Assembly: GCA_014382535.1 (NCBI GenBank)
Contig: JACNJN010000072.1
Span: 1-50,389 of the forward strand
Source: Candidatus Desulfolinea nitratireducens
GTDB taxonomy: Bacteria; Chloroflexota; Anaerolineae; Anaerolineales; Villigracilaceae
Direction: 5' to 3'
DNA: 50,389 bases
Below are positions 4,959 to 22,212 of this stretch, piece after piece (the first letter of the stretch is position 1; every line of letters begins with the position of its first letter). The notes under the pieces are model-generated. The model ran no database searches and had not been told where the DNA came from. It saw only the letters and a list, made by a program, of their open reading frames with translations. The position numbers and the translations under genes are program-made.

Positions 4959-5759
4959 CTATTGGATATGCTCATCGAATTCAGATTCGAGTGCAGGGTA
5001 GAAACGCTCTCCCCAGAACTGGAGCTTCCAGGTGCGGGTTGGACCAGTACGGTCTTTGAGGGTATGCACCACCAGATTAAGACAACCACAGTTGGCAGGC
5101 TCACCTTCTCGAGAAACCAAAAGGACACGATCTGCTTCATAAGGCACACGCTCATCGCCTAGTAAATGCCCCAGGTTAAAATCTTCGTCCAAATAAAAAC
5201 TTTCTGCCTTTAAAGCGGCAGCCACAATAATCGCCCATTCATGTCGTCTGGACATCGCACGTAAAGCCGCGGCGGCTTCTCCGCTACGCAACTCCAAGGG
5301 GATCATCCCTGTTAGTCCAACCACTGGCATACGGTTGAGATAATCCACAGTCAGCAGGGCCTTTCCTTTTTGAGGGAAGTTGTAGGTGTTCAGTAAAACA
5401 TCTTCCAAGCCACGCACCGTATCACGGCGATCATCCAAAGAGAGCAAGACTGCGTTCCCACATTCTGCTAATTTATCTTCTCTGGCGAATTGCTCTGCTT
5501 CCCCATGAGGGCCTGCAAGCATGGCAGAAGCCTGTTGGGATATTCTGTATTTCAATTCTTCTTCGGTATGCTCATAACAGCCTATAGCGGTGGGGATATT
5601 TTGGGCCGCGGCATCAAAAAGCATCCGCAACATCCAACTTGTTTTTCCAACACCAGGAGCAGCTGCTAGTAGTGTAAGACCGCCTCCCCAAAAGGGGAGC
5701 CCGGCAAATTCGCCAAAAATCTGATAGGGGGTTGGAACGCCAATAACACCTGCTCTCAT
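4959..5759 (-). CDS. DnaB/RadA-like RecA-fold ATPase
   Basis: The protein is 266 aa and consists of a single RecA-type core. Walker A is APGVGKTS at 34-41, the E of YEHTEEE (about 62-68) fits the catalytic glutamate of DnaB-type motors, and Walker B is ALLTVDYL with D139. A later segment AALKAES resembles the DnaB H3 region (xxQLxR), but the usual Gln and Arg are missing. It lacks the N-terminal primase-binding domain of DnaB, so it is a stand-alone motor core. In this block it probably serves element replication or DNA processing together with the initiator at 16639-18558. A promoter with a -10 at 5766-5771 would start the transcript at the ATG, so it may be read from a leaderless mRNA. Confidence 0.75.
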   Translation of the reverse strand: MRAGVIGVPTPYQIFGEFAGLPFWGGGLTLLAAAPGVGKTSWMLRMLFDAAAQNIPTAIGCYEHTEEELKYRISQQASAMLAGPHGEAEQFAREDKLAECGNAVLLSLDDRRDTVRGLEDVLLNTYNFPQKGKALLTVDYLNRMPVVGLTGMIPLELRSGEAAAALRAMSRRHEWAIIVAAALKAESFYLDEDFNLGHLLGDERVPYEADRVLLVSREGEPANCGCLNLVVHTLKDRTGPTRTWKLQFWGERFYPALESEFDEHIQ

Positions 5760-14588: not shown

Positions 14589-15467
14589 TTAAAAAACACT
14601 ACCGAGAAAAGGCATCACCATGGATAGCACCAAGCCCACCACAGCGGTAACCCCAAAAAGACCACTGCGCCTGCGCACAAGAGCGGCACGCGTTTCGGTG
14701 ATCTCCAATACCGTGCGATGAACTGACTCTCGCAAAGCAGTTACGCTTGTGAGGATAGGACGGCTGCGCTGGAAGAAATCCAGAATATCGGTCAGAAAAA
14801 GTGTCGCATCCACATCAGATGGATCGGGCAGGTGTGCTTGAACAACTTCTACAGCCTCTTCAATATCTTTGATCTCTATCTGTGCTACCAATAGTCCCAG
14901 CAGATTACTGAATGTGCCGCCTACCGATGCCGTTCTGCGCAAGGCATCCTGTACCCCAACACCAGACGATAAAAGCGATTCAAGCACAGATAGCGCAATT
15001 AACATATTATTGCGCATGGTTTCTGCGCGTGCTTTTGCCATTTTCTCCAAACGCGTATAGGGGCGACGTAAGCCCAGATAGATATAAAAAGCGGCAAAAA
15101 GAGGGGCGGCAACCAACATCCCGTTCATCGCGAGTGCGCCTGCCATCAAACCGCCAACCAGCAAATACTTGCTGAACTCACGAATAGCGGCGGCATAGAA
15201 TTCCCCTGGCGTATCATAGGGATAGCCCGCTCTGCGGATTAGTCCCACCACATCCAGCATATTCTTTGCATGTTCCGGGTCAAAACGTTTGGGGAGAATG
15301 GCAATCAGAATCGCATCCCAAGTTGATCGTCGTTGTGGGATTTTATTTGCATCCTGAAAGGCGCCATCCAAACGACTATGGCGAAAAACCCCATATTGGA
15401 AAGTCGAAATAATTTCAAATACAAAGGCCGCTACACTGAGCGCACCTAAAAAAGCCAAACCTGTCAT
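14589..15467 (-). CDS. type II secretion F-domain protein, TadC-like
   Basis: I use the ATG at 15467, which has GGAGGTG 6 nt upstream. The GTG at 15476 lies inside that Shine-Dalgarno, so it is not the start. The protein is 292 aa. It has an N-terminal helix, a cytoplasmic segment, paired helices (about 95-135), a T2SSF helical domain (about 160-260; VLESLLSSGVGVQDALRRTA) and a C-terminal helix. It is the TadC partner of the TadB-like protein at 2696-3628. A terminator follows. Confidence 0.75.
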   Translation of the reverse strand: MTGLAFLGALSVAAFVFEIISTFQYGVFRHSRLDGAFQDANKIPQRRSTWDAILIAILPKRFDPEHAKNMLDVVGLIRRAGYPYDTPGEFYAAAIREFSKYLLVGGLMAGALAMNGMLVAAPLFAAFYIYLGLRRPYTRLEKMAKARAETMRNNMLIALSVLESLLSSGVGVQDALRRTASVGGTFSNLLGLLVAQIEIKDIEEAVEVVQAHLPDPSDVDATLFLTDILDFFQRSRPILTSVTALRESVHRTVLEITETRAALVRRRSGLFGVTAVVGLVLSMVMPFLGSVF

Positions 15468-15508
15468 AAAACACACCTCCGTTTTTCAAGAAAATACCAG
15501 CTAATGGT

Positions 15509-16615
15509 TCAGGGTAGTCGTGGCGTGCTCCCCAAAAGTTCAGCTAAAACTCTCTTTTGCGCTTGCGTCCGGCGGATTTCTTTTGGTTCGCGAGGCACGC
15601 AATTCATCACATTGCCGCTTCCAGAAGCCCAGTTTTTGCCACCGAACTCTTCTGGCCATAAGGGATGTTCAGCTTTGTCCCAATTGTGGGGTAGACGATA
15701 AACACCCTCACCACGCACAGCCAAGAACCAACTTTCCAATGCTTCAAAGCGTGGACCCCATAATCCCCAAAGGAGTTGGCGGCGCACCTGCTCATTTTTG
15801 GCAAAATGAAGTTTCCGAGTGCAGTCTCTACAAAGCGGAACTGCATTTTCAGGACGCTTTAAGCGCCAGGCAAGTTCAGGAGAGAGATTCTCACTAGGCA
15901 AAACAAAACGCCAGGAAGCATTTTTTCCACAACGAATACAAGCTTTTGAAAATTCTTTTTCCCAAGGAACGCCAGCCAAAGCTGCTGCGAAGAGTTCATC
16001 CTGGAAAGCATTCTCCACATCAAACATTTGTCTGGATAAACTAACCGCCCCATCTGGGATGCTGATTTGCGCTTCGATACGGCAATCCAGAATAAAACCT
16101 GCGGAAGCCAATATCTTGCCACGCTCCCAGGGCGAAAAGTGGTTTCTTATAATTTCCGGATCTACACGCCCATAGCCACTAATCCCACACACAGAGCGAA
16201 CCCGCCTGAGATCGGCTACTGAGGCAGCAAAAAGGGCAAAGATTAAATCCTTGATCCCCGTATTTGCATCAATTCCGCCCACCGCTGAGTTTTTATGCTC
16301 TCCCACTGCGGAGATAATGTCTGCTATCAACTTTTCATCCATTTGCATATCCGGAGCCATCTCCACGATCAAATCTGCCGGGGGCAAGGACACAAAACAC
16401 CAAGAAGAGATTACCTTTTTAAAGACAATTTCAACATCTTGCTCATCCCCCCTTGCCAAAGCCACAATACGCAAAGACGGACAAAAAAAGGTCTGAAAAA
16501 GCCGGCGCGTTTTTGTAGGGTAGATAAAAACAAATATTTTTTCACCAAGTCTGCGACGGAACATCACCCCCCAAGCTTGAGAGAAAGCTGAGCGTAAAAG
16601 AATAATTTTTCGCAT
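15509..16615 (-). CDS. DUF192-like domain fused to a four-Cys zinc-finger region
   Basis: The protein is 368 aa. Residues 1-90 resemble DUF192 (ILLRSAFSQAWGVMFRRRL; later ADLIVEMAP in the position of VLEL), normally a small exported or cytosolic domain. The C-terminal part carries C226-x2-C229 and C262-x2-C265, a treble-clef or HNH-like zinc site spaced by 32 residues, with basic helices around it. The middle part (95-220) is unknown. A DUF192-like start joined to a zinc finger is unusual. It lies between the replication initiator and the TadC-like gene, so a DNA-linked role is plausible but unproven. Confidence 0.5.
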   Translation of the reverse strand: MRKIILLRSAFSQAWGVMFRRRLGEKIFVFIYPTKTRRLFQTFFCPSLRIVALARGDEQDVEIVFKKVISSWCFVSLPPADLIVEMAPDMQMDEKLIADIISAVGEHKNSAVGGIDANTGIKDLIFALFAASVADLRRVRSVCGISGYGRVDPEIIRNHFSPWERGKILASAGFILDCRIEAQISIPDGAVSLSRQMFDVENAFQDELFAAALAGVPWEKEFSKACIRCGKNASWRFVLPSENLSPELAWRLKRPENAVPLCRDCTRKLHFAKNEQVRRQLLWGLWGPRFEALESWFLAVRGEGVYRLPHNWDKAEHPLWPEEFGGKNWASGSGNVMNCVPREPKEIRRTQAQKRVLAELLGSTPRLP

Positions 16616-16638
16616 GATTCAATTCCTTTTTTGAAATC

Positions 16639-18558
16639 TCACTCGCCAAAAAGACGTTTCAATAATTCCTCTTTGGCTTGGTCTTCCAATGAGCTGAAGG
16701 CAGCCAGATAAATTTCATCATCCACAGCTTTCCCTTCTAAATCTTTTTCAAGCATAGCTTTGAGTTTATAGGGGGAAAGTTTTGCCAGAGCATTTGCTGG
16801 CCACCCTGGACCACCTCGCGGCGATTCCAGCGTGCGCGCAATCGCATTGGAAACCCCGCTTGCGTCATGCAAGCCCGCCCCAGCCGGGGTATAGGCATAA
16901 AGTAGCCATGCAGCAAAAGTCTCGCCGGTTGCACCTGCTCTGCGCAAGGTGTTGCGCTTTTGGGGGCTAGCGACATTAATTGCCAGCAGATGGTTTAAAT
17001 CCCAATAAGACATAGACCCCACCCCCGTTTTTTCTTTGTGGCGATATTTCTTTTTTTCTTGTGGGGGGATTAGGGGGGAGGTTTTTAAAGGAGTTAAGGG
17101 GTTCTTTAAAGAGTTAAGGGGTTTAAAGACTCTGCAAGTCGCGTAAAGATCGTCTGCAAATCGCGTAAAGCCCATACTGCAAATCGCGTAAAGATCATAT
17201 GCAAATCGCGTAAAGACGATACTGCAATCCGCGTAAGCTTCTTCCTCACATTCGAGCGCAGCTTGCACGATCTCAGGCGGAATATCATTCAATAAAACAC
17301 GGAAAGTACGCGGACTGTGGTTGAAATTTTCTGCACGCCCTTCATCCAGATTTTTTAGGTAAGCAAGAGTTACAGGATGGCGCAACTTTCCCGGCTCTTT
17401 GGCTTTTTTGCCGAAACGTCCATTCATCCATTCATAGATCGTCATGGGGCGGGAAATACCCAGCCAATGGGCAATTTCAGCATAGCCACCCTGCACTGTG
17501 CAAATATCTCGTTGCTCATCTTGCCCCTCATAGCAACGATCTCGTAAGAGAATATACATCCAGGCTGGACCTGCACCCAAATGGGGCAGGATATGCTCCA
17601 AAAAGAAAAGAGAAATTACGATTTGGTCGTTTTGCGGCATGAGATGCATGCGTAGTCTTTCAGCAAAAGCCTCTAGTTGCGAAGCGGGTAACTCCCCTGA
17701 GAATAAATACCGCACGATCTCAGCCACATCCATTGGTTTGCCAGGTGAGCTATTTTCTTGTTGAGGTGCAAATAGTTCACTTAGAGGTGTTTCGCAAGAA
17801 GCAGCCAAAACGCCGGCGGGGCCGTTAAAAGTCTCAACACCAGATTGCAACCACTGTGCCAGTGAAAAGGAATCAGAACCGGTCAAAGGCAGCGTAATTG
17901 CAACAGTGTATTTTCTTGGTAGGCGACGAGGCTGTGCGCCCTCTGCCCACTCAGGCTCAGTCGTCTTTGAAGTCACCAAGCCAGATAACTTCTCCCAGGT
18001 TTTCTCTCGTTCAACTCGATTCCAAAAAGTACGCTCACTAATGCCACAAAGTGTGGCAATCTGTTTTCCTGATAAGCGAGCAGTCTTTTGACCACCACGT
18101 CCACCTTCTGAATAGGCAGCCTGCCTAAAGCCCACATACATCCAACCTAAATCTGGGCCTAACTGGCTGAGATGTTTACGGAAGTACCCAGGCAGATAAA
18201 CAGCTCTATCTGGACGTACCACCTGGTAATACAGAGACGCAATTTCTTCGCTTGAGACTGCAATCTCTTTTTTGTCAAGCTCGTCTTCGACATCATCATC
18301 TTGCGATGCTTCACTTTCTGAGACCACAAACTCAACCTGTACAGACTGATTCATCACCCCGATCAGGAGGCGGGAGACCGTGCTGGTTAGGCGACTTTCC
18401 AACCAATCACGAGCATAGGCGTTGCGAACACCAATGGTCAAAGCACCATGACTAAACTCCAAAGCTTTCGTGTCTCGCACCCAGGTATCGAAAGAGGCAC
18501 GCGGCATCTCCATTTGCAGTTGTCCCAAGACAATTTTCCAGGCTTTTTGAATATCCAT
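16639..18558 (-). CDS. replication initiator with DnaA domain I-like N-terminus and two winged-helix-like repeats
   Basis: I use the ATG at 18558, with GGAAGG about 8 nt upstream, giving 639 aa. Residues 1-80 look like DnaA domain I (AW...PRASFDTWVRDTK...ALTIGVRNAYARDWLES), the part that contacts DnaB helicase. Two related DNA-binding-like units follow: about 120-195 (LGPDLGWMYVGFRQ...GISERTFW) and about 320-385 (LGAGPAWMYILLRD...GISRPMTIYEW). No AAA+ motif is present, so this is not DnaA but a plasmid-type initiator that may recruit the helicase itself. Residues about 440-475 are encoded by an iteron array (17132-17238), placing the likely origin inside the gene. ParA and the ParB-like gene lie upstream. 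Confidence 0.65.
   Translation of the reverse strand: MDIQKAWKIVLGQLQMEMPRASFDTWVRDTKALEFSHGALTIGVRNAYARDWLESRLTSTVSRLLIGVMNQSVQVEFVVSESEASQDDDVEDELDKKEIAVSSEEIASLYYQVVRPDRAVYLPGYFRKHLSQLGPDLGWMYVGFRQAAYSEGGRGGQKTARLSGKQIATLCGISERTFWNRVEREKTWEKLSGLVTSKTTEPEWAEGAQPRRLPRKYTVAITLPLTGSDSFSLAQWLQSGVETFNGPAGVLAASCETPLSELFAPQQENSSPGKPMDVAEIVRYLFSGELPASQLEAFAERLRMHLMPQNDQIVISLFFLEHILPHLGAGPAWMYILLRDRCYEGQDEQRDICTVQGGYAEIAHWLGISRPMTIYEWMNGRFGKKAKEPGKLRHPVTLAYLKNLDEGRAENFNHSPRTFRVLLNDIPPEIVQAALECEEEAYADCSIVFTRFAYDLYAICSMGFTRFADDLYATCRVFKPLNSLKNPLTPLKTSPLIPPQEKKKYRHKEKTGVGSMSYWDLNHLLAINVASPQKRNTLRRAGATGETFAAWLLYAYTPAGAGLHDASGVSNAIARTLESPRGGPGWPANALAKLSPYKLKAMLEKDLEGKAVDDEIYLAAFSSLEDQAKEELLKRLFGE
17084..17128. 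other. repeated AT-rich boxes next to iterons, possible unwinding element
   Basis: The block TTTAAA(G)GAGTTAAGGGGTT occurs at 17084-17103 and 17105-17123, with a third TTTAAAG at 17122-17128. It directly adjoins the iterons at 17132 and is the natural candidate for the DNA-unwinding part of an origin. Confidence 0.45.
17132..17238. repeat. five iterons (22-23 bp period), candidate replication origin
   Basis: The 17-mer core ctgcaaatcgcgtaaag is seen at 17132-17148 (one change), 17154-17170 (exact), 17177-17193 (exact), 17199-17215 (first base changed) and 17222-17238 (diverged). The spacings are 22, 23, 22 and 23 bp, about two helical turns. The array lies inside the initiator reading frame and there encodes a 15-residue repeat (FTRFA-x-DLYA-x-C). 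Confidence 0.75.
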
Positions 18559-18639
18559 AAAAAAGCCTTCCTTAGCCCACCTGTGCAAGCAGAAGGCAAC
18601 TGTCTGTTCCGCTCGGTTTTGGGCTTCCTGTGGCTTCGG

Positions 18640-18716
18640 CGTAGACGGCAACGTAGGCGGGTATGTAGACGGAGCGTAGACAAGACGTAGGCGACACGTT
18701 GTCATTGCCGTCTACG
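18640..18716. repeat. five helically phased GTAG(A/G)C repeats with a 12-bp inverted repeat
   Basis: GTAGAC or GTAGGC occurs in direct orientation at 18641, 18653, 18665, 18676 and 18687, each 11 or 12 bp apart. CGTAGACGGCAA (18640-18651) returns as the perfect inverse TTGCCGTCTACG at 18705-18716. The array sits between the ParB-like gene and the initiator start and looks like a protein-binding site: centromere (parS), initiator operator or part of the origin. Confidence 0.7.
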
Positions 18717-18759
18717 CTCGCTATTTTTGTAAAAAGTTTTTCAAGAATTTGTCCAGGCA

Positions 18760-19368
18760 TCAAAAATCTCCATCCAGCACTAAACTGTAATTCGTCGTTT
18801 TTTCAACAGGCTGGAGTACCAACTCGCCACTGCTATACGCTTTGAGTGCATATTGTAAAAATGCAGAGATGAGCTCTCCCACTGGAATATCCAAGCCCTT
18901 CTCAGATGCCAGTACACCGATCTCATCCTTGAGTTCAGCAGAGAAATTTCGCCAAGTCGTGACCACCCGCCAGGATGCTTCTTTGGGCAGCTTTTTTCGA
19001 CCTGCCTTTCCTATCTTTCGTTTGGATGCAGTTCTCTTAGGAAAAAGCGTCATCCGCAAGCGTTCGGGGTTAGGACGTGGGGCAAGAATAAGTTTGCCGC
19101 GACTATAAGCATCCAGTCCATACTCCAGCAACGCACGAGCGACTTCACCTATAGGCACATGCAGTTCTTCTGCAAGCTGACGTACTTGCAAAGCTGCTTG
19201 TGGATCAACACCACGATAGACCACCTTCTCACTCTGATGATTTCGCTCCCAATCCCGTTTGCGCCGACGTGGGGCAGCCATAGGCAGGGATTCATAAATA
19301 TCAGGTGGTGCAGCGGATGAGCTTTCACTTGCAGGCATATCCCCAAAGGGATTTCTTCGATCACTCAT
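18760..19368 (-). CDS. ParB-like partition partner with an internal duplication
   Basis: I use the ATG at 19368, with AGGAGG 4 nt upstream, giving 202 aa. Two homologous units are visible, at 71-97 (PIGEVARALLEYGLDAYSRG) and 161-187 (PVGELISAFLQYALKAYSSG), each followed by (K/E)L(I/V)L. They look like DNA-binding ribbon-helix-helix or helix-turn-helix folds and are 90 residues apart. The N-terminus is disordered and acidic to basic. It directly follows parA (8-nt gap), the standard place for a centromere-binding protein, and the phased repeats at 18640-18716 just downstream are a good candidate site. It is not a classical ParB. Confidence 0.6.
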   Translation of the reverse strand: MSDRRNPFGDMPASESSSAAPPDIYESLPMAAPRRRKRDWERNHQSEKVVYRGVDPQAALQVRQLAEELHVPIGEVARALLEYGLDAYSRGKLILAPRPNPERLRMTLFPKRTASKRKIGKAGRKKLPKEASWRVVTTWRNFSAELKDEIGVLASEKGLDIPVGELISAFLQYALKAYSSGELVLQPVEKTTNYSLVLDGDF

Positions 19369-19376
19369 ATTCCCTC

Positions 19377-20147
19377 CTAGAATTTCAGAACCTGCTTCGT
19401 TAGGCTCATATACTCCTCTGCGGAGCGACATTTCTCATCATATTCAAAGATCGTTTTCCCTGAAGCAGCACATTCTCTCAGAATAGTGGCTCGGTGAATG
19501 GGATCCAAGACACTCTCTCCGAAACGTTCTTTTAGTGCTGTATTCGTGATCTTGCTTTCTCTGGTTTGGGCATCATAGAAGGTTGGCAGGATGCCTAAAA
19601 GTGCTCCTTTCCAACCCTTCTTTTGTTGCAAGATATTCATCATATAGGCAACTTTTCCCACACCTTCCGCAGAAAGAAACTCGGTTGCGGTAGGAACGAT
19701 TACGAGATCAGATGCCCAAACAGCCCGCTCCTGAATACCTCCCACGCTGGGTGCGGTATCGAAAATAATATAATGCAACCCTTCTTTGAAAAAAGGTTTG
19801 AGCGCAGTCCGGATCGAAGAGACTGGCTGGTTCTGGGCATTAAGCACGGTTTGGGCTGCCATCGTCTGTTGGTCACCTGGATAAAGATATAACCCATCTC
19901 TGCCAGACGAACGCACCCAGGACTGCACAAAACTGCTTTCCTGTGGGGAGTTTCCCATCGTGAGCAGGTAAAAAACACCTGATTCAGGATTGCGCCCCAA
20001 AGCTGTAGCGGACTGTCCCTGTGGGTCCAGGTCTACAAGTAAGACCTGCTTACCGCGTATAGCAAGTCCATGAGCAAGAGAAACAGCTGTGGTGGTTTTA
20101 CCAACCCCACCTTTCTGGTTGGCAATACAGATGATTTTTGTAGACAT
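19377..20147 (-). CDS. parA: ParA-family partition ATPase
   Basis: The protein is 256 aa. The deviant Walker A KGGVGKTT is at 12-19 with both signature lysines (K12, K17), Walker A' is LLVDLDPQG, and Walker B is IIFDTAPS. It has no N-terminal DNA-binding extension, so it is a type Ib-like or small type ParA. A SHD of GGAAGG lies 4 nt before the ATG. With the CopG-like gene upstream and the ParB-like gene downstream it forms a partition cassette, so the element is probably maintained, at least at times, as a separate replicon. A TadZ role in placing the pilus is a less likely alternative. Confidence 0.9.
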   Translation of the reverse strand: MSTKIICIANQKGGVGKTTTAVSLAHGLAIRGKQVLLVDLDPQGQSATALGRNPESGVFYLLTMGNSPQESSFVQSWVRSSGRDGLYLYPGDQQTMAAQTVLNAQNQPVSSIRTALKPFFKEGLHYIIFDTAPSVGGIQERAVWASDLVIVPTATEFLSAEGVGKVAYMMNILQQKKGWKGALLGILPTFYDAQTRESKITNTALKERFGESVLDPIHRATILRECAASGKTIFEYDEKCRSAEEYMSLTKQVLKF

Positions 20148-20161
20148 TTATCCTTCCTCGA

Positions 20162-20266
20162 CTATTTTGATTTCTTGAAAATCAATAAATAAAGAACACC
20201 ACCAAACACTAATGGGCCAAAAAACATGCCTATAGCAACAAGAGTAGGTAATAGGGTGCTAATCAT
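20162..20266 (-). CDS. 34-aa single-pass membrane peptide
   Basis: The ATG at 20266 overlaps the stop of the CopG-like gene by 8 nt (AATGATTAG), suggesting coupled translation. The peptide MISTLLPTLVAIGMFFGPLV continues hydrophobic and ends in a basic KKSK tail, so it is one transmembrane helix with a positive inside end. The function is unknown. It resembles small toxin or membrane regulator peptides in size only. Confidence 0.45.
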   Translation of the reverse strand: MISTLLPTLVAIGMFFGPLVFGGVLYLLIFKKSK

Positions 20267-20453
20267 TGGATTTTGACACATCTTGTGAACCCACCTCGGT
20301 TGCAAATTCTTCACAAGGAACAAGTTGGAGCCGTTCCAATTCTTTTCGGATAATGAGGGCTGCTTGCGCTTTTGGAACGCGGTACTCGCGTTCAGCCAAA
20401 TCATTCAGTGCCAATACTTCATGATCTCGTAAATAAACAATAACTTTCGCCAT
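20259..20453 (-). CDS. CopG-like ribbon-helix-helix regulator
   Basis: The protein is 64 aa from the ATG at 20453. An upstream GTG at 20462 lies within the GAGGTGA ribosome site, so the ATG is preferred. It has a short beta strand (AKVIVYLRD) followed by two helices (EVLALNDLAEREYRV-P-KAQAALIIRKELERL), the RHH pattern. It heads the partition operon and probably represses it. The inverted repeat at 20544-20566 is a candidate operator. It could also act as a plasmid copy-number regulator. Confidence 0.7.
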   Translation of the reverse strand: MAKVIVYLRDHEVLALNDLAEREYRVPKAQAALIIRKELERLQLVPCEEFATEVGSQDVSKSND

Positions 20454-20481
20454 GTACTTCACCTCGTTGAATTTAAAAATA

Positions 20482-20508
20482 AAAAGAGCCGCGATAACGA
20501 CTCTTTTA
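20482..20508. terminator. intrinsic terminator
   Basis: The stem AAAAGAG-C-CG ... CG-A-CTCTTTT sits with A and T runs on both sides, between the two-TM protein gene at 20578 and the CopG-like gene, so it ends the former on the minus strand. Confidence 0.7.
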
Positions 20509-20543
20509 TCAAGTGAGAGACAACTAAGTTTATGGGTTAGTTT

Positions 20544-20566
20544 ATGAATTGATTACAAGAATTCAT
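20544..20566. promoter_or_regulatory. inverted repeat, possible operator
   Basis: ATGAATT (20544-20550) and AATTCAT (20560-20566) form a 7-bp inverted repeat separated by 9 bp in the AT-rich gap upstream of the CopG-like gene. Confidence 0.35.
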
Positions 20567-20577
20567 ATAAGATTATT

Positions 20578-21231
20578 TCATCTGTATTTTGGCTTCTTTT
20601 TCTTTTTTGCTCTTCTTTCTAATTCTTCTAGTGCGCGGTCTCGCCAAGTAGTGTAATAAGCCTGTTCAGAAACAACCGGGGAACCATCAGCGTTTATCCC
20701 AAGATGTTCAGCAATTAATTCTGCCAAAGTAAAGGCATCACGAATAGAGTCTCGGCTTTCCCATTGAGCAGCAATTGGTAACCAACGTTCCAGAGGAAAG
20801 GCTGGTTTACGCCCTCTCCTTCGTGGTCTCAAGGGTTTATCTTCAATTAGAATGATATCATCGGTTAAACTGTCCAGTTTTTCCAATGATTGTGTGTCAT
20901 CTTGAGCAACTAATTCATATCCCCACCAATACAAAATACGCTCTCTCCAATGTCCGGGCTGAGGTGCTGAAAAAAACACTACTCGATTGCGAATAGCAGC
21001 ATCTATACAACAAGCGGTTATAAAGCCAGCCACAATCAAAAAGAATAGCAAGACAATTTGATATGCTAAAGCTGTTTGAGACAGAGTTTCTCCTAAACTT
21101 ATTTGCAGATTGTAATTTGTCCAAACGAGTGGCAAAAACATAGACATTCCACTGCCTAAAAGCAAGAGATATAGGAACCTTCTTTGTGATCGTTCATATT
21201 TGCGTTGTTTGAATTCTGTGATAATCATCAT
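20578..21231 (-). CDS. two-TM membrane protein with a basic cytoplasmic domain
   Basis: Taking the ATG at 21231 gives 217 aa. There are two transmembrane helices (about 17-40 and 55-80), then a charged domain with RRRGRKPAF and a C-terminal stretch including [10 protein letters not shown] and [16 protein letters not shown], which could be a DNA-binding helix pair ending in KKKKKPK. I recognise no family. A membrane-bound, basic-tailed protein next to the partition genes might tether the replicon, but this is speculation. It ends at the terminator 20482-20508. Confidence 0.6.
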
Positions 21232-21239
21232 AAGGCAAG

Positions 21240-21301
21240 ATTGTACTCGAAAAGTATATCTGCACAAAACACTTGCATTCCATATAGCTCCATAGTATTC
21301 T
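21240..21301. promoter_or_regulatory. divergent promoters at the element edge
   Basis: On the minus strand TTGTGC (21262-21267), 16 bp and TACAAT (21240-21245) give a start near 21233, two bases before the ATG at 21231. On the plus strand TTGCAT (21273-21278), 17 bp and TATTCT (21296-21301) face yjbQ. Confidence 0.5.
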
Positions 21302-21339
21302 ACAAGCAGTTTTTACTTGATTATCAAAGAGAGGACATT

Positions 21340-21759
21340 ATGAAATCCTATCGCAAAGAACTCTGGTTCCACACCCCTACCCGCCGAGAATTCATTAATA
21401 TCACACCACAAGTTAACGAAGCTCTCCAAGAGAGTGGAGTGAAAGAGGGCCTAGCCCTGGTTTCAGCGATGCATATAACAGCCTCTGTCTTTATCAATGA
21501 CCATGAATATGGCCTTCATCAGGATTATGAAGAATGGCTTGAAAAACTTGCTCCCCATGCCCCCATTGATCAATATAGACATAATGATACGGGTGAGGAT
21601 AACGCGGACGCGCATATGAAAAGGCAGATTATGGGGCGTGAAGTTGTTGTTGCTGTCACTAACGGAAAACTTGACTTTGGTACATGGGAGCAAATCTTCT
21701 ACGGCGAGTTTGACGGTCGCCGCAGAAAACGTGTCCTTATAAAAATAATCGGTGAATAA
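21340..21759 (+). CDS. yjbQ: YjbQ (UPF0047) family protein
   Basis: The protein is 139 aa from the ATG at 21340, with GAGG in the correct position. It shows the YjbQ/UPF0047 features: an N-terminal strand region, [33 protein letters not shown] and the final [16 protein letters not shown]. Members are a widely spread single-domain family with thiamine phosphate synthase-like activity reported for some. It is the first gene on the plus strand after the 20-kb minus-strand block. It is nearly identical in protein to the truncated copy downstream but diverged at many third codon positions. Confidence 0.9.
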
Positions 21760-21764
21760 TAAAA

Positions 21765-21790
21765 GCTCCCTGATAGTATTATCAGGGAGC
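21765..21790. terminator. 11-bp stem hairpin, terminator (minus orientation has the U run)
   Basis: GCTCCCTGATA/TATCAGGGAGC with loop gtat lies just after the first yjbQ. The T-rich tail is on the minus-strand side, so on the plus strand it is a weaker stop. Confidence 0.6.
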
Positions 21791-21849
21791 GACGACAAAT
21801 CTTTTCTTATGAACAAATTACGCTAGATTTTGCGTTAGGAGACTAACTC

Positions 21850-22212
21850 TTGGAAATGATAGGAGAGCCACAAGCTTTGGGGACAACTGAAAGTCGTATT
21901 TGGTTTCGGCTGGTAAACGCCATGCATATCACCGCATCCGTCTTCATCAACGACCATGAGCATGGGTTGCATCAGGATTACGAAATGTGGCTCGAAAAGC
22001 TTGCTCCCCATGCGCCCATAGATCAATATCGTCATAATGACACAGGCGAAGATAACGCCGATGCGCATATGAAGCGCCAGATCATGGGTCGCGAAGTCAC
22101 CATCGCCATCACCAACGGAAAACTCGATTTCGGAACCTGGGAGCAGATCTTCTACGGCGAATTCGATGGTCGTCGCAAAAAACGGGTATTGGTCAAGATT
22201 ATTGGTGAATAA
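21850..22212 (+). pseudogene. yjbQ: yjbQ remnant lacking its first 40 codons
   Basis: From the Leu codon at 21910 the protein is about 92% identical to the complete copy ([15 protein letters not shown]...), but upstream it reads an unrelated stretch of about 20 residues with only a TTG start. The missing part includes the N-terminal beta strand of the fold, so the product is unlikely to be functional. The nucleotide sequences of the two copies differ strongly at synonymous sites, so this is not a recent tandem duplication. Confidence 0.75.

What the first reader, a model, noticed from the sequence alone, without database searches (positions are those of the whole stretch)
16639..18558. Replication initiator with a DnaA domain I-like head, two winged-helix-like repeats and its origin inside the gene
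The gene looks like a plasmid-type initiator whose N-terminus resembles the helicase-contacting domain I of DnaA but has no AAA+ part. Five 17-bp iterons (22-23 bp apart) and two copies of an AT-rich box lie inside the reading frame. This would be a compact, self-contained replicon of a type I do not recognise in Chloroflexota. Seen: repeats, spacing, N-terminal motif and the two similar units. Inferred: replication role.
Basis: partly seen in the sequence, partly recalled or inferred. Interest (0 to 1): 0.85.

Follow-up and report, generated by a model that had tools for sequence, protein, structure and literature searches.

The report
Plasmid-type initiator wearing host DnaA's head
A mobile-element gene widespread in Anaerolineae bacteria joins a plasmid-style DNA-binding core, with its likely replication origin inside its own coding sequence, to the helicase-recruiting head of the host's chromosome initiator DnaA, and most relatives without this head have a helicase or other ATPase gene next door.

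Summary
The minus-strand gene 16639-18558 encodes 639 aa: a true DnaA domain I (Pfam DnaA_N 1.2e-10; model against 4tps Z 14.8), a double winged-helix core resembling RepE54 (Z 7.0-8.2), a disordered linker and a helical C-terminus. Five 17-bp iterons (22/23-bp pitch, read in two codon phases) and two AT-rich boxes lie in the linker part; 0 and 7 of 20,000 synonymous recodings reach their similarity. The core matches 112 of 400 genomes of the order; 77 of 91 tested genes carry such intragenic repeats. New here: domain I is portable. It is N-terminal in 95, C-terminal in 10, not found in 10 of 115 Reps, and tracks host DnaA beyond core descent (0 of 5,000 permutations). All 6 Reps followed by DnaB have a missing or weak domain I (under 70 bits, a cut set after seeing the scores), against 9 of 83 others, but only 3-4 events are independent. 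Best reading: an initiator with an intragenic origin that recruits helicase through a captured domain I. Precedents: RepA_N origins, AAA-less DnaA_N proteins. Replication, iteron binding and helicase contact are inferred.

The parts
16639..18558 (-). rep gene, 639 aa: DnaA domain I + tandem winged-helix core + disordered linker holding the iterons + helical C-terminal domain
18319..18558 (-). codes residues 1-80, DnaA domain I (Pfam match residues 5-63)
   Evidence: E 1.2e-10; 62% identical to the genome's own DnaA over 98 aa; 4tps_B Z 14.8, rmsd 1.5, 80 aligned
17269..18270 (-). codes residues 97-430, core of two winged-helix-like units
   Evidence: model; RepE54-type chains Z 7.0-8.2 in the first 36 rows, RctB 6.4, R6K pi 6.0
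17222..17238 (-). iteron 1 (codon phase 0; most divergent, 13 of 17)
17199..17215 (-). iteron 2 (codon phase 2)
17177..17193 (-). iteron 3 (codon phase 0)
17154..17170 (-). iteron 4 (codon phase 2)
17132..17148 (-). iteron 5 (codon phase 0)
17080..17119 (-). two 20-bp AT-rich boxes in tandem, candidate unwinding element; similar short tandem boxes follow the iterons in L068, L144, L147 and L155
16642..17010 (-). codes residues 517-639, helical C-terminal domain, fold not assigned
18639..18717 (.). 11-12-bp repeats with a 13-bp inverted repeat upstream of rep: candidate operator or centromere; short-period arrays of other sequence precede many related rep genes
18760..19431 (-). 223-aa protein with two ribbon-helix-helix-like stretches (my reading of the sequence), candidate partner of ParA or regulator
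   Evidence: weak matches only (DUF6027 below cut-off; phrog_5118 of unknown function 1.4e-6; none in NCBIfam)
19377..20147 (-). parA-type partition ATPase, 256 aa
   Evidence: AAA_31 3.9e-34
4959..5759 (-). 266-aa ATPase with only a DnaB C-terminal domain, 11 kb from rep: possible alternative helicase partner
15509..16615 (-). 368-aa protein of unknown function directly downstream of rep; a similar-looking frame follows rep on C9 and in several relatives
   Evidence: similarity read by eye

Best explanation
The gene is the replication initiator of a mobile element that sits integrated in Anaerolineae chromosomes. The double winged-helix core binds the five iterons that lie in its own gene, and the adjacent AT-rich boxes melt. 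Domain I, derived from the host lineage's chromosomal DnaA, then brings the host's DnaB helicase (directly, or through the host's own domain I partners) to the opened DNA, so the element does not need the full host DnaA. Elements that carry their own DnaB lose this need, and their domain I weakens or disappears. Shown by sequence and model: domain composition, the repeats and DNA-level selection on them, tracking of host DnaA, and the inverse association with an adjacent DnaB gene. Inferred: iteron binding, melting, helicase contact, replication, independence from DnaA.
For: Domain I by profile, PDB sequence and fold. Core fold like RepE54, RctB and pi. Iterons read in two codon phases, 0 of 20,000 recodings; linker repeats in 77 of 91 genes against 3 of 91 for the core control at the same threshold. 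Neighbouring parA. Domain I tracks host DnaA after removing core distance: partial r 0.327, 0 of 5,000 permutations, 49 Reps; in L151 domain I is 95% identical to its own host's, rank 1 of 56, with 83% DNA identity to dnaA over nt 1-230, the only match listed. DnaB next to rep: 6 of 6 have domain I under 70 bits against 9 of 83 without, Fisher 8.6e-6; threshold-free Mann-Whitney 1.0e-4. Other cuts from 30 to 90 bits give Fisher 0.006 to 8.6e-6, and thinning to 81 Reps at 95% core identity gives 1.5e-5 at 70 bits and 4.1e-4 at 80. The two DnaB-linked Reps with a residual domain I lack the aromatic residue at the site of E. coli Phe46, kept in 71 of 76 N-terminal domains I without DnaB, 8 of 10 C-terminal ones and 30 of 30 DnaAs; Phe46 contacts DnaB in E. 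coli (PMC5448010, passage). No excess of consensus DnaA boxes around rep genes (0.47 against 0.58 per kb in flanks). Parallel: the longer form TrfA-44 of RK2 loads the Pseudomonas helicase (PMC4980987, passage).
Against: No experiment. The DnaB association rests on few events: 3 independent pairs, 3 on well supported or 4 on all branches, sign test median p 0.25; the other tests ignore relatedness, and the 70-bit cut was chosen after seeing the scores. L144 and L155 are sisters. Four Reps with downstream sequence (L082, L083, L084, L267) show no domain I and no DnaB; they and L268 belong to one genus-level group (5 of the 19 genomes of that group matched were examined) and all five have an AAA+ ATPase gene directly upstream. 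Four further Reps without DnaB score 57-68 bits and one 33. The window's own element carries a DnaB-C-domain-only ATPase 11 kb away. In its own genome the window's domain I is not specially close: own DnaA ranks 8 of 56 (71%), and the best DnaA is of the same genus for only 21 of 51 Reps. The host's DnaA box is unknown and no box cluster was found at dnaA. Foldseek E-values for the core are not significant.
Confidence: 0.72

Rival explanations
1. Domain I pairs with the domain I of host DnaA (as DnaA monomers do) and pulls whole DnaA to the iterons; helicase loading is then done by host DnaA, not by Rep.
For: Domain I dimerises in E. coli through Trp6 (PMC5448010, passage); a tryptophan aligns there by eye (W7 of the window protein). 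Tracking of host DnaA is expected here too, and an own DnaB would also relieve this need.
Against: Nothing tested here separates it from direct helicase contact; the lack of an excess of consensus DnaA boxes near rep is only mildly against it.
Confidence: 0.22
2. Domain I loads the element's own DnaB-C-domain-only ATPase (4959-5759) rather than the host's DnaB.
For: The 266-aa protein matches DnaB_C above cut-off (1.7e-11) and DnaB helicases in the PDB (1.7e-6); 272-290-aa relatives occur in genomes that have Rep, six of them on the same contig about 18-45 kb away (places).
Against: It lies among pilus- and secretion-like genes; no DnaB N-terminal domain was found in it; domain I tracks host DnaA, which an element-borne partner would not require.
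Confidence: 0.1
3. The protein is a transcription regulator of the element with operators inside its gene, not an initiator.
For: Weak helix-turn-helix matches in the core; the repeats could be operators.
Against: DnaA domain I, RepE-like double winged helix, AT-rich boxes beside iterons, adjacent parA, and adjacent DnaB genes in some relatives point to replication.
Confidence: 0.06
4. The repeats are only a low-complexity peptide linker.
For: The linker is predicted disordered (residues 432-516).
Against: The same DNA is read in two codon phases and gives different peptides; 0 of 20,000 recodings.
Confidence: 0.01

Closest known systems
RepE/pi/TrfA-type (Rep_3) iteron plasmid initiators
   Same: Two winged helices in series, tandem iterons, AT-rich stretch beside them
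   Different: No PF01051 match listed at E<=10; iterons inside the gene; a DnaA domain I attached; extra C-terminal domain
RepA_N initiators (pSK41)
   Same: Origin with Rep boxes in the middle of the rep gene, encoding a linker; frequent on conjugative plasmids (PMC5703833, passages)
   Different: No RepA_N match listed at E<=10; two winged helices; a DnaA domain I, where pSK41 Rep has a DnaG-interaction domain
Chromosomal DnaA
   Same: Domain I, up to 95% identical to the host's own (L151); 62% over 98 aa for the window
   Different: No AAA+ domain III and no domain IV
Rickettsia plasmid DnaA-like proteins (DALP)
   Same: Plasmid proteins with a DnaA_N domain (PMC4316617, passage; PMC9098888, passages)
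   Different: DnaA_N is in the C-terminal region there and the rest is described as extremely variable; iterons not mentioned in the passages; sequences not compared here
Brevibacillus phage Jenst replication initiation protein (phrog_26369-like) and pTHECO01 HTH protein
   Same: C-terminal DnaA domain I on a protein annotated as replication initiation or HTH
   Different: The core profile finds neither; the Jenst gene holds DnaA-box-like 9-mers and a short 22-bp repeat of 2.5 copies
Leptolinea sp. HRD-7 212-kb plasmid protein BCY19596.1
   Same: N-terminal domain I plus a match to the second winged-helix part of this family (5.4e-10); a parA-like gene on the same circular plasmid
   Different: 295 aa, no first winged-helix unit matched, no tandem repeat found inside (27-bp repeats just upstream)

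Membership tests
Rep_3 (PF01051) iteron initiators | PF01051 profile match | tested here: not met
   not among the families listed at E<=10; HMMER's filters drop most weak matches, so a remote link is not excluded
Rep_3 (PF01051) iteron initiators | tandem winged-helix fold | tested here: met
   RepE54-type chains over both units, Z 7.0-8.2, 170-197 residues, rmsd 3.7-4.5; moderate strength
Rep_3 (PF01051) iteron initiators | tandem iterons | tested here: met
   binding by Rep not testable here
Rep_3 (PF01051) iteron initiators | DnaA boxes in the origin | tested here: inconclusive
   no excess of the consensus, but the host's box is unknown
RepA_N (PF06970) | RepA_N profile match | tested here: not met
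   not among the families listed at E<=10
RepA_N (PF06970) | origin repeats inside the rep gene, encoding a linker | tested here: met
   (repeats and disorder; origin function inferred)
RepA_N (PF06970) | N-terminal domain fold of the solved RepA_N initiators | tested here: inconclusive
   4pql Z 5.8, 4pt7 5.6, 5kbj 5.3, below RepE54; that these entries are RepA_N proteins is recalled
DnaA | domain I | tested here: met
DnaA | AAA+ domain III and DNA-binding domain IV | tested here: not met
   no such family listed; TIGR00362 37 bits against a cut-off of 343.9, residues 7-100 only
AAA-less DnaA_N proteins of phage Jenst and pTHECO01 | homologous DNA-binding half | tested here: not met
   the core profile finds neither at E<=10
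Rickettsia DALP | homology outside DnaA_N | not tested
   no Rickettsia sequence was fetched

The most novel reading that the evidence does not exclude
DnaA domain I is an interchangeable helicase-recruitment cartridge: this initiator family has repeatedly taken it from the current host's dnaA, at either end of the protein, to match the host's helicase, and drops it when the element acquires its own DnaB (or another ATPase), giving initiators that open and load their origin without host DnaA.
Probability: 0.45. Interest if true: 0.85.

Novelty: new variant of a known kind. Interest (0 to 1): 0.72.

Why it matters
How plasmid and integrated-element initiators obtain the host helicase sets their host range and their dependence on DnaA. 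Here evolution appears to have run the swap experiment: a captured domain I, or an own DnaB. That makes the role of DnaA domain I testable outside DnaA, in a phylum whose replication is little studied (my impression, not a search result), and gives a small gene-with-origin candidate for a vector replicon in Anaerolineae.

Tried and rejected
Rejected: the peptide-repeat explanation. No support for a phage origin: the whole protein has no match among phage records at 1e-5 and no confirmed relative among viral contigs (24 pattern matches, none confirmed); a C-terminal domain I of a relative (L092) does match 6 phage records at 0.01, weakly. No Rfam family in 15000-22000. Among plasmid records the whole protein finds one Leptolinea plasmid, in the domain I stretch only; its first 79 residues find 7 records, three of them annotated dnaA. 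The C-terminal domain was not modelled alone and is barely tested by the fold comparison, so its fold is open. DnaA boxes gave no answer. Domain I tree: 74 columns for 117 rows, most forks unresolved; used as a lead only. NCBIfam and PHROGs gave only domain I matches for Rep. Median rank of own DnaA in the first set was 6 of 30.

Only Reps whose flanks I fetched could enter the DnaB count; many matches were not fetched. DnaB was sought in the fetched stretches by phmmer with the L066 DnaB at 1e-5 over frames of 80 aa or more; a DnaB_C fragment 2 kb after the L089 Rep (2.6e-8) was not found that way and is not counted.

Searches of the held open-access library for prior work. By title and abstract start, none lists a paper on this family or on a fusion of DnaA domain I with a RepE-like core and intragenic iterons. 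Passages only were read of PMC5703833, PMC5448010, PMC4980987, PMC4316617 and PMC9098888; other papers were seen as listings.

Full report
WHAT IS THERE. The gene at 16639-18558 (minus strand) encodes 639 residues. Pfam finds DnaA_N at residues 5-63, E 1.2e-10, over its cut-off, and weak helix-turn-helix matches; no AAA+ DnaA family, Rep_3 or RepA_N is listed at E up to 10. The PDB chains found by sequence (3 at E<=1) are all DnaA, aligned over its N-terminal part. The AlphaFold model (mean pLDDT 73.8, 16 sequences) has a confident domain I, core and C-terminal domain and a low-confidence stretch 432-516. Domain I gives 4tps_B at Z 14.8, rmsd 1.5, 80 residues. The core modelled alone (pLDDT 83.0, pTM 0.81) gives, in the first 36 of 50 rows, RepE54 entries, entries of the same co-crystal series and Rep-DNA complexes (not every title names RepE54), Z 7.0-8.2, spanning both winged helices; then RctB 6.4, R6K pi 6.0 and initiator N-terminal domains 4pql 5.8, 4pt7 5.6, 5kbj 5.3. 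The tool warns that Z under 8 may be a common arrangement, and Foldseek's E-values are not significant; the run of replication initiators at the top is what persuades me.

THE REPEATS. Five 17-bp iterons at a 22/23-bp pitch fall in the part that codes the disordered linker; two 20-bp AT-rich boxes follow. Because the pitch alternates, successive iterons are read in different codon phases and give different peptides. With the protein kept and codons redrawn, 0 of 20,000 reach the iteron identity and 7 of 20,000 that of the boxes. So the DNA itself is under selection. In relatives the iteron sequences differ between clades but the place after the core is kept. The stretch after the core exceeds all 300 recodings in 69 of 91 Reps, and at most 3 of 300 reach it in 77 of 91; the core as control gives 1 and 3 of 91; 9 of 100 rows were too short to test. 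The 14 that miss include a clade with irregular repeats visible in the protein (L082-L084) and one with no repeat at all (L170).

DISTRIBUTION. Residues 97-639 match 16 of 400 genomes drawn from the phylum; profiles of the core match 36 of 396 of the class, 112 of 400 of the order and 49 of 152 of the family. The sets overlap, and the counts at E<=0.001 include short frames of about 300 aa that match only the second winged-helix part. The own genome holds a second copy on contig C9 (73% identical) with the same neighbours. In the single 4.4-Mb contig of G005 three copies lie at 0.04, 2.03 and 3.14 Mb, so the elements are integrated at least there. Window neighbours are parA, an RHH-like gene, two prepilin peptidase-like, a TadE-like and a weak PrgI-like gene, which looks conjugative. 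The contig starts inside the element, so its ends were not mapped. DNA similarity to C9 runs from 13400 (where C9 ends) to 20139, and a probably chromosomal UPF0047 gene lies at about 21340-21759.

DOMAIN I IS PORTABLE. Of 115 Reps (core at least 60 bits; near-copies included; two cut at the 5' end left out), 95 have domain I at the N-terminus, 10 at the C-terminus, 10 none found; two of the ten (L095, L268) run off their contig at the 3' end. L087 shows two in a row at the C-terminus by my profile; Pfam reports one. Domain I distances among 49 N-terminal Reps follow the distances between their hosts' DnaA domains I after removing core distance: partial r 0.327, 0 of 5,000 permutations. The raw correlation with the core is stronger (0.818), so most of the history is ordinary descent with occasional replacement. 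The clearest case is L151: 95% identical to its own host's DnaA domain I, rank 1 of 56, while L068 shares 68% of its core but only 56% of its domain I; L068 is its nearest row on the core tree. DNA identity of L151 to dnaA is 83% over nt 1-230 only. The window Rep and L210, from a genome of the same genus, share 77% in domain I and 28% in the core. The window Rep itself is not the best case: its own DnaA ranks 8 of 56 (71%). By best hit alone the signal is weak: same genus in 21 of 51.

DOMAIN I OR A HELICASE GENE. A DnaB gene lies within 1 kb after rep in 6 of 89 Reps that have at least 2.5 kb of fetched downstream sequence and an uncut N-terminus. Their domain I scores 0, 0, 0, 0, 58 and 67 bits; of the 83 others 9 score under 70. 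Fisher gives 8.6e-6 at that cut, which I set after seeing the scores; cuts from 30 to 90 bits give 0.006 to 8.6e-6, and the threshold-free Mann-Whitney test 1.0e-4. Thinned at 95% core identity to 81 Reps the result stays. None of these tests allows for relatedness: on the trees there are 3-4 independent pairs, in the same direction or undecided and never opposite, sign test median p 0.25. The L066 neighbour is a full DnaB with both domains. Of the ten Reps without domain I, four have DnaB (L066, L070, L149, L152), five of one genus-level group have an AAA+ ATPase gene directly upstream (L082, L083, L084, L267, L268; 5 of the 19 genomes of that group matched were looked at), and one is a fragment (L095). 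That ATPase type also sits beside Reps that keep domain I (L213, L214, L265, L266 and the shorter L100-L102, L136, L137), so it is no clean substitute. The two DnaB-linked Reps with residual domain I have R or C where 30 of 30 DnaAs and 71 of 76 N-terminal Reps without DnaB have Y or F, the site of E. coli Phe46 (Phe46 from PMC5448010, passage). These two Reps are sisters.

HOW IT PROBABLY WORKS. Rep binds its intragenic iterons with the winged helices, the AT boxes open, and several domains I held on the array recruit DnaB, as the DnaA filament does. All of that is inference from anatomy. Contact with host DnaA through domain I pairing is the main rival and is not excluded. The element's own DnaB_C-only ATPase (4959-5759) is another.

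COMPARISON. An origin inside rep, coding a dispensable linker, is described for pSK41 (PMC5703833, passages). Helicase loading by a longer initiator form is described for TrfA-44 (PMC4980987, passage). DnaA_N proteins are described on Rickettsia plasmids (PMC4316617 and PMC9098888, passages), and C-terminal domains I occur in annotated proteins of phage Jenst and pTHECO01. I saw none that combines a RepE-like double winged helix, intragenic iterons and a DnaA domain I, and no report of an exchange with DnaB in the ten searches listed under Tried and rejected. Hence: new variant of a known kind.

Noticed in passing
L247 2167-3210 (phage Jenst, NC_028805.1): The annotated replication initiation gene codes a C-terminal DnaA domain I and holds about four tandem 9-mers TGTGGATAA (70% match), the reverse complement of the recalled DnaA box, inside its frame.
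   Followed up: partly
L103 14953-15840 (Leptolinea HRD-7 plasmid AP024711.1): A 295-aa protein with DnaA domain I and the second winged-helix part, two genes after an AAA+ ATPase gene, on a closed circular plasmid; frames of about 280-340 aa matching the same part occur in many genomes of family f2.
   Followed up: partly
window 4959-5759: A DnaB C-domain-only ATPase of 266 aa in the element, with 272-290-aa relatives in other carriers.
   Followed up: partly
L087 9630-12098: A Rep with two DnaA domain I matches in a row at its C-terminus by my profile.
   Followed up: no
L152 8994-11941: Two rep frames in tandem, the first a partial 321-aa core, followed by DnaB; the C-termini of L149 and L152 align poorly with the rest.
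   Followed up: no
L183 7171-9129 (G937): The rep gene is split into two frames; the core match holds a TAG.
   Followed up: no
L089 10315-10524 (G670): A weak DnaB_C fragment (2.6e-8) about 2 kb after a Rep whose C-terminal domain I is also weak (33 bits): a possible further case of the exchange, not counted.
   Followed up: no
window 18639-18717: Short-period (11-12 bp) repeats upstream of rep, also upstream of many related rep genes with other sequences: a second array, perhaps centromere or operator.
   Followed up: partly
L096-L098 (G641, G664): 232-234-aa proteins with domain I and one winged-helix unit, with long near-palindromic tandem repeats over their 3' end; a DnaB-like gene lies about 16-20 kb away.
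   Followed up: no
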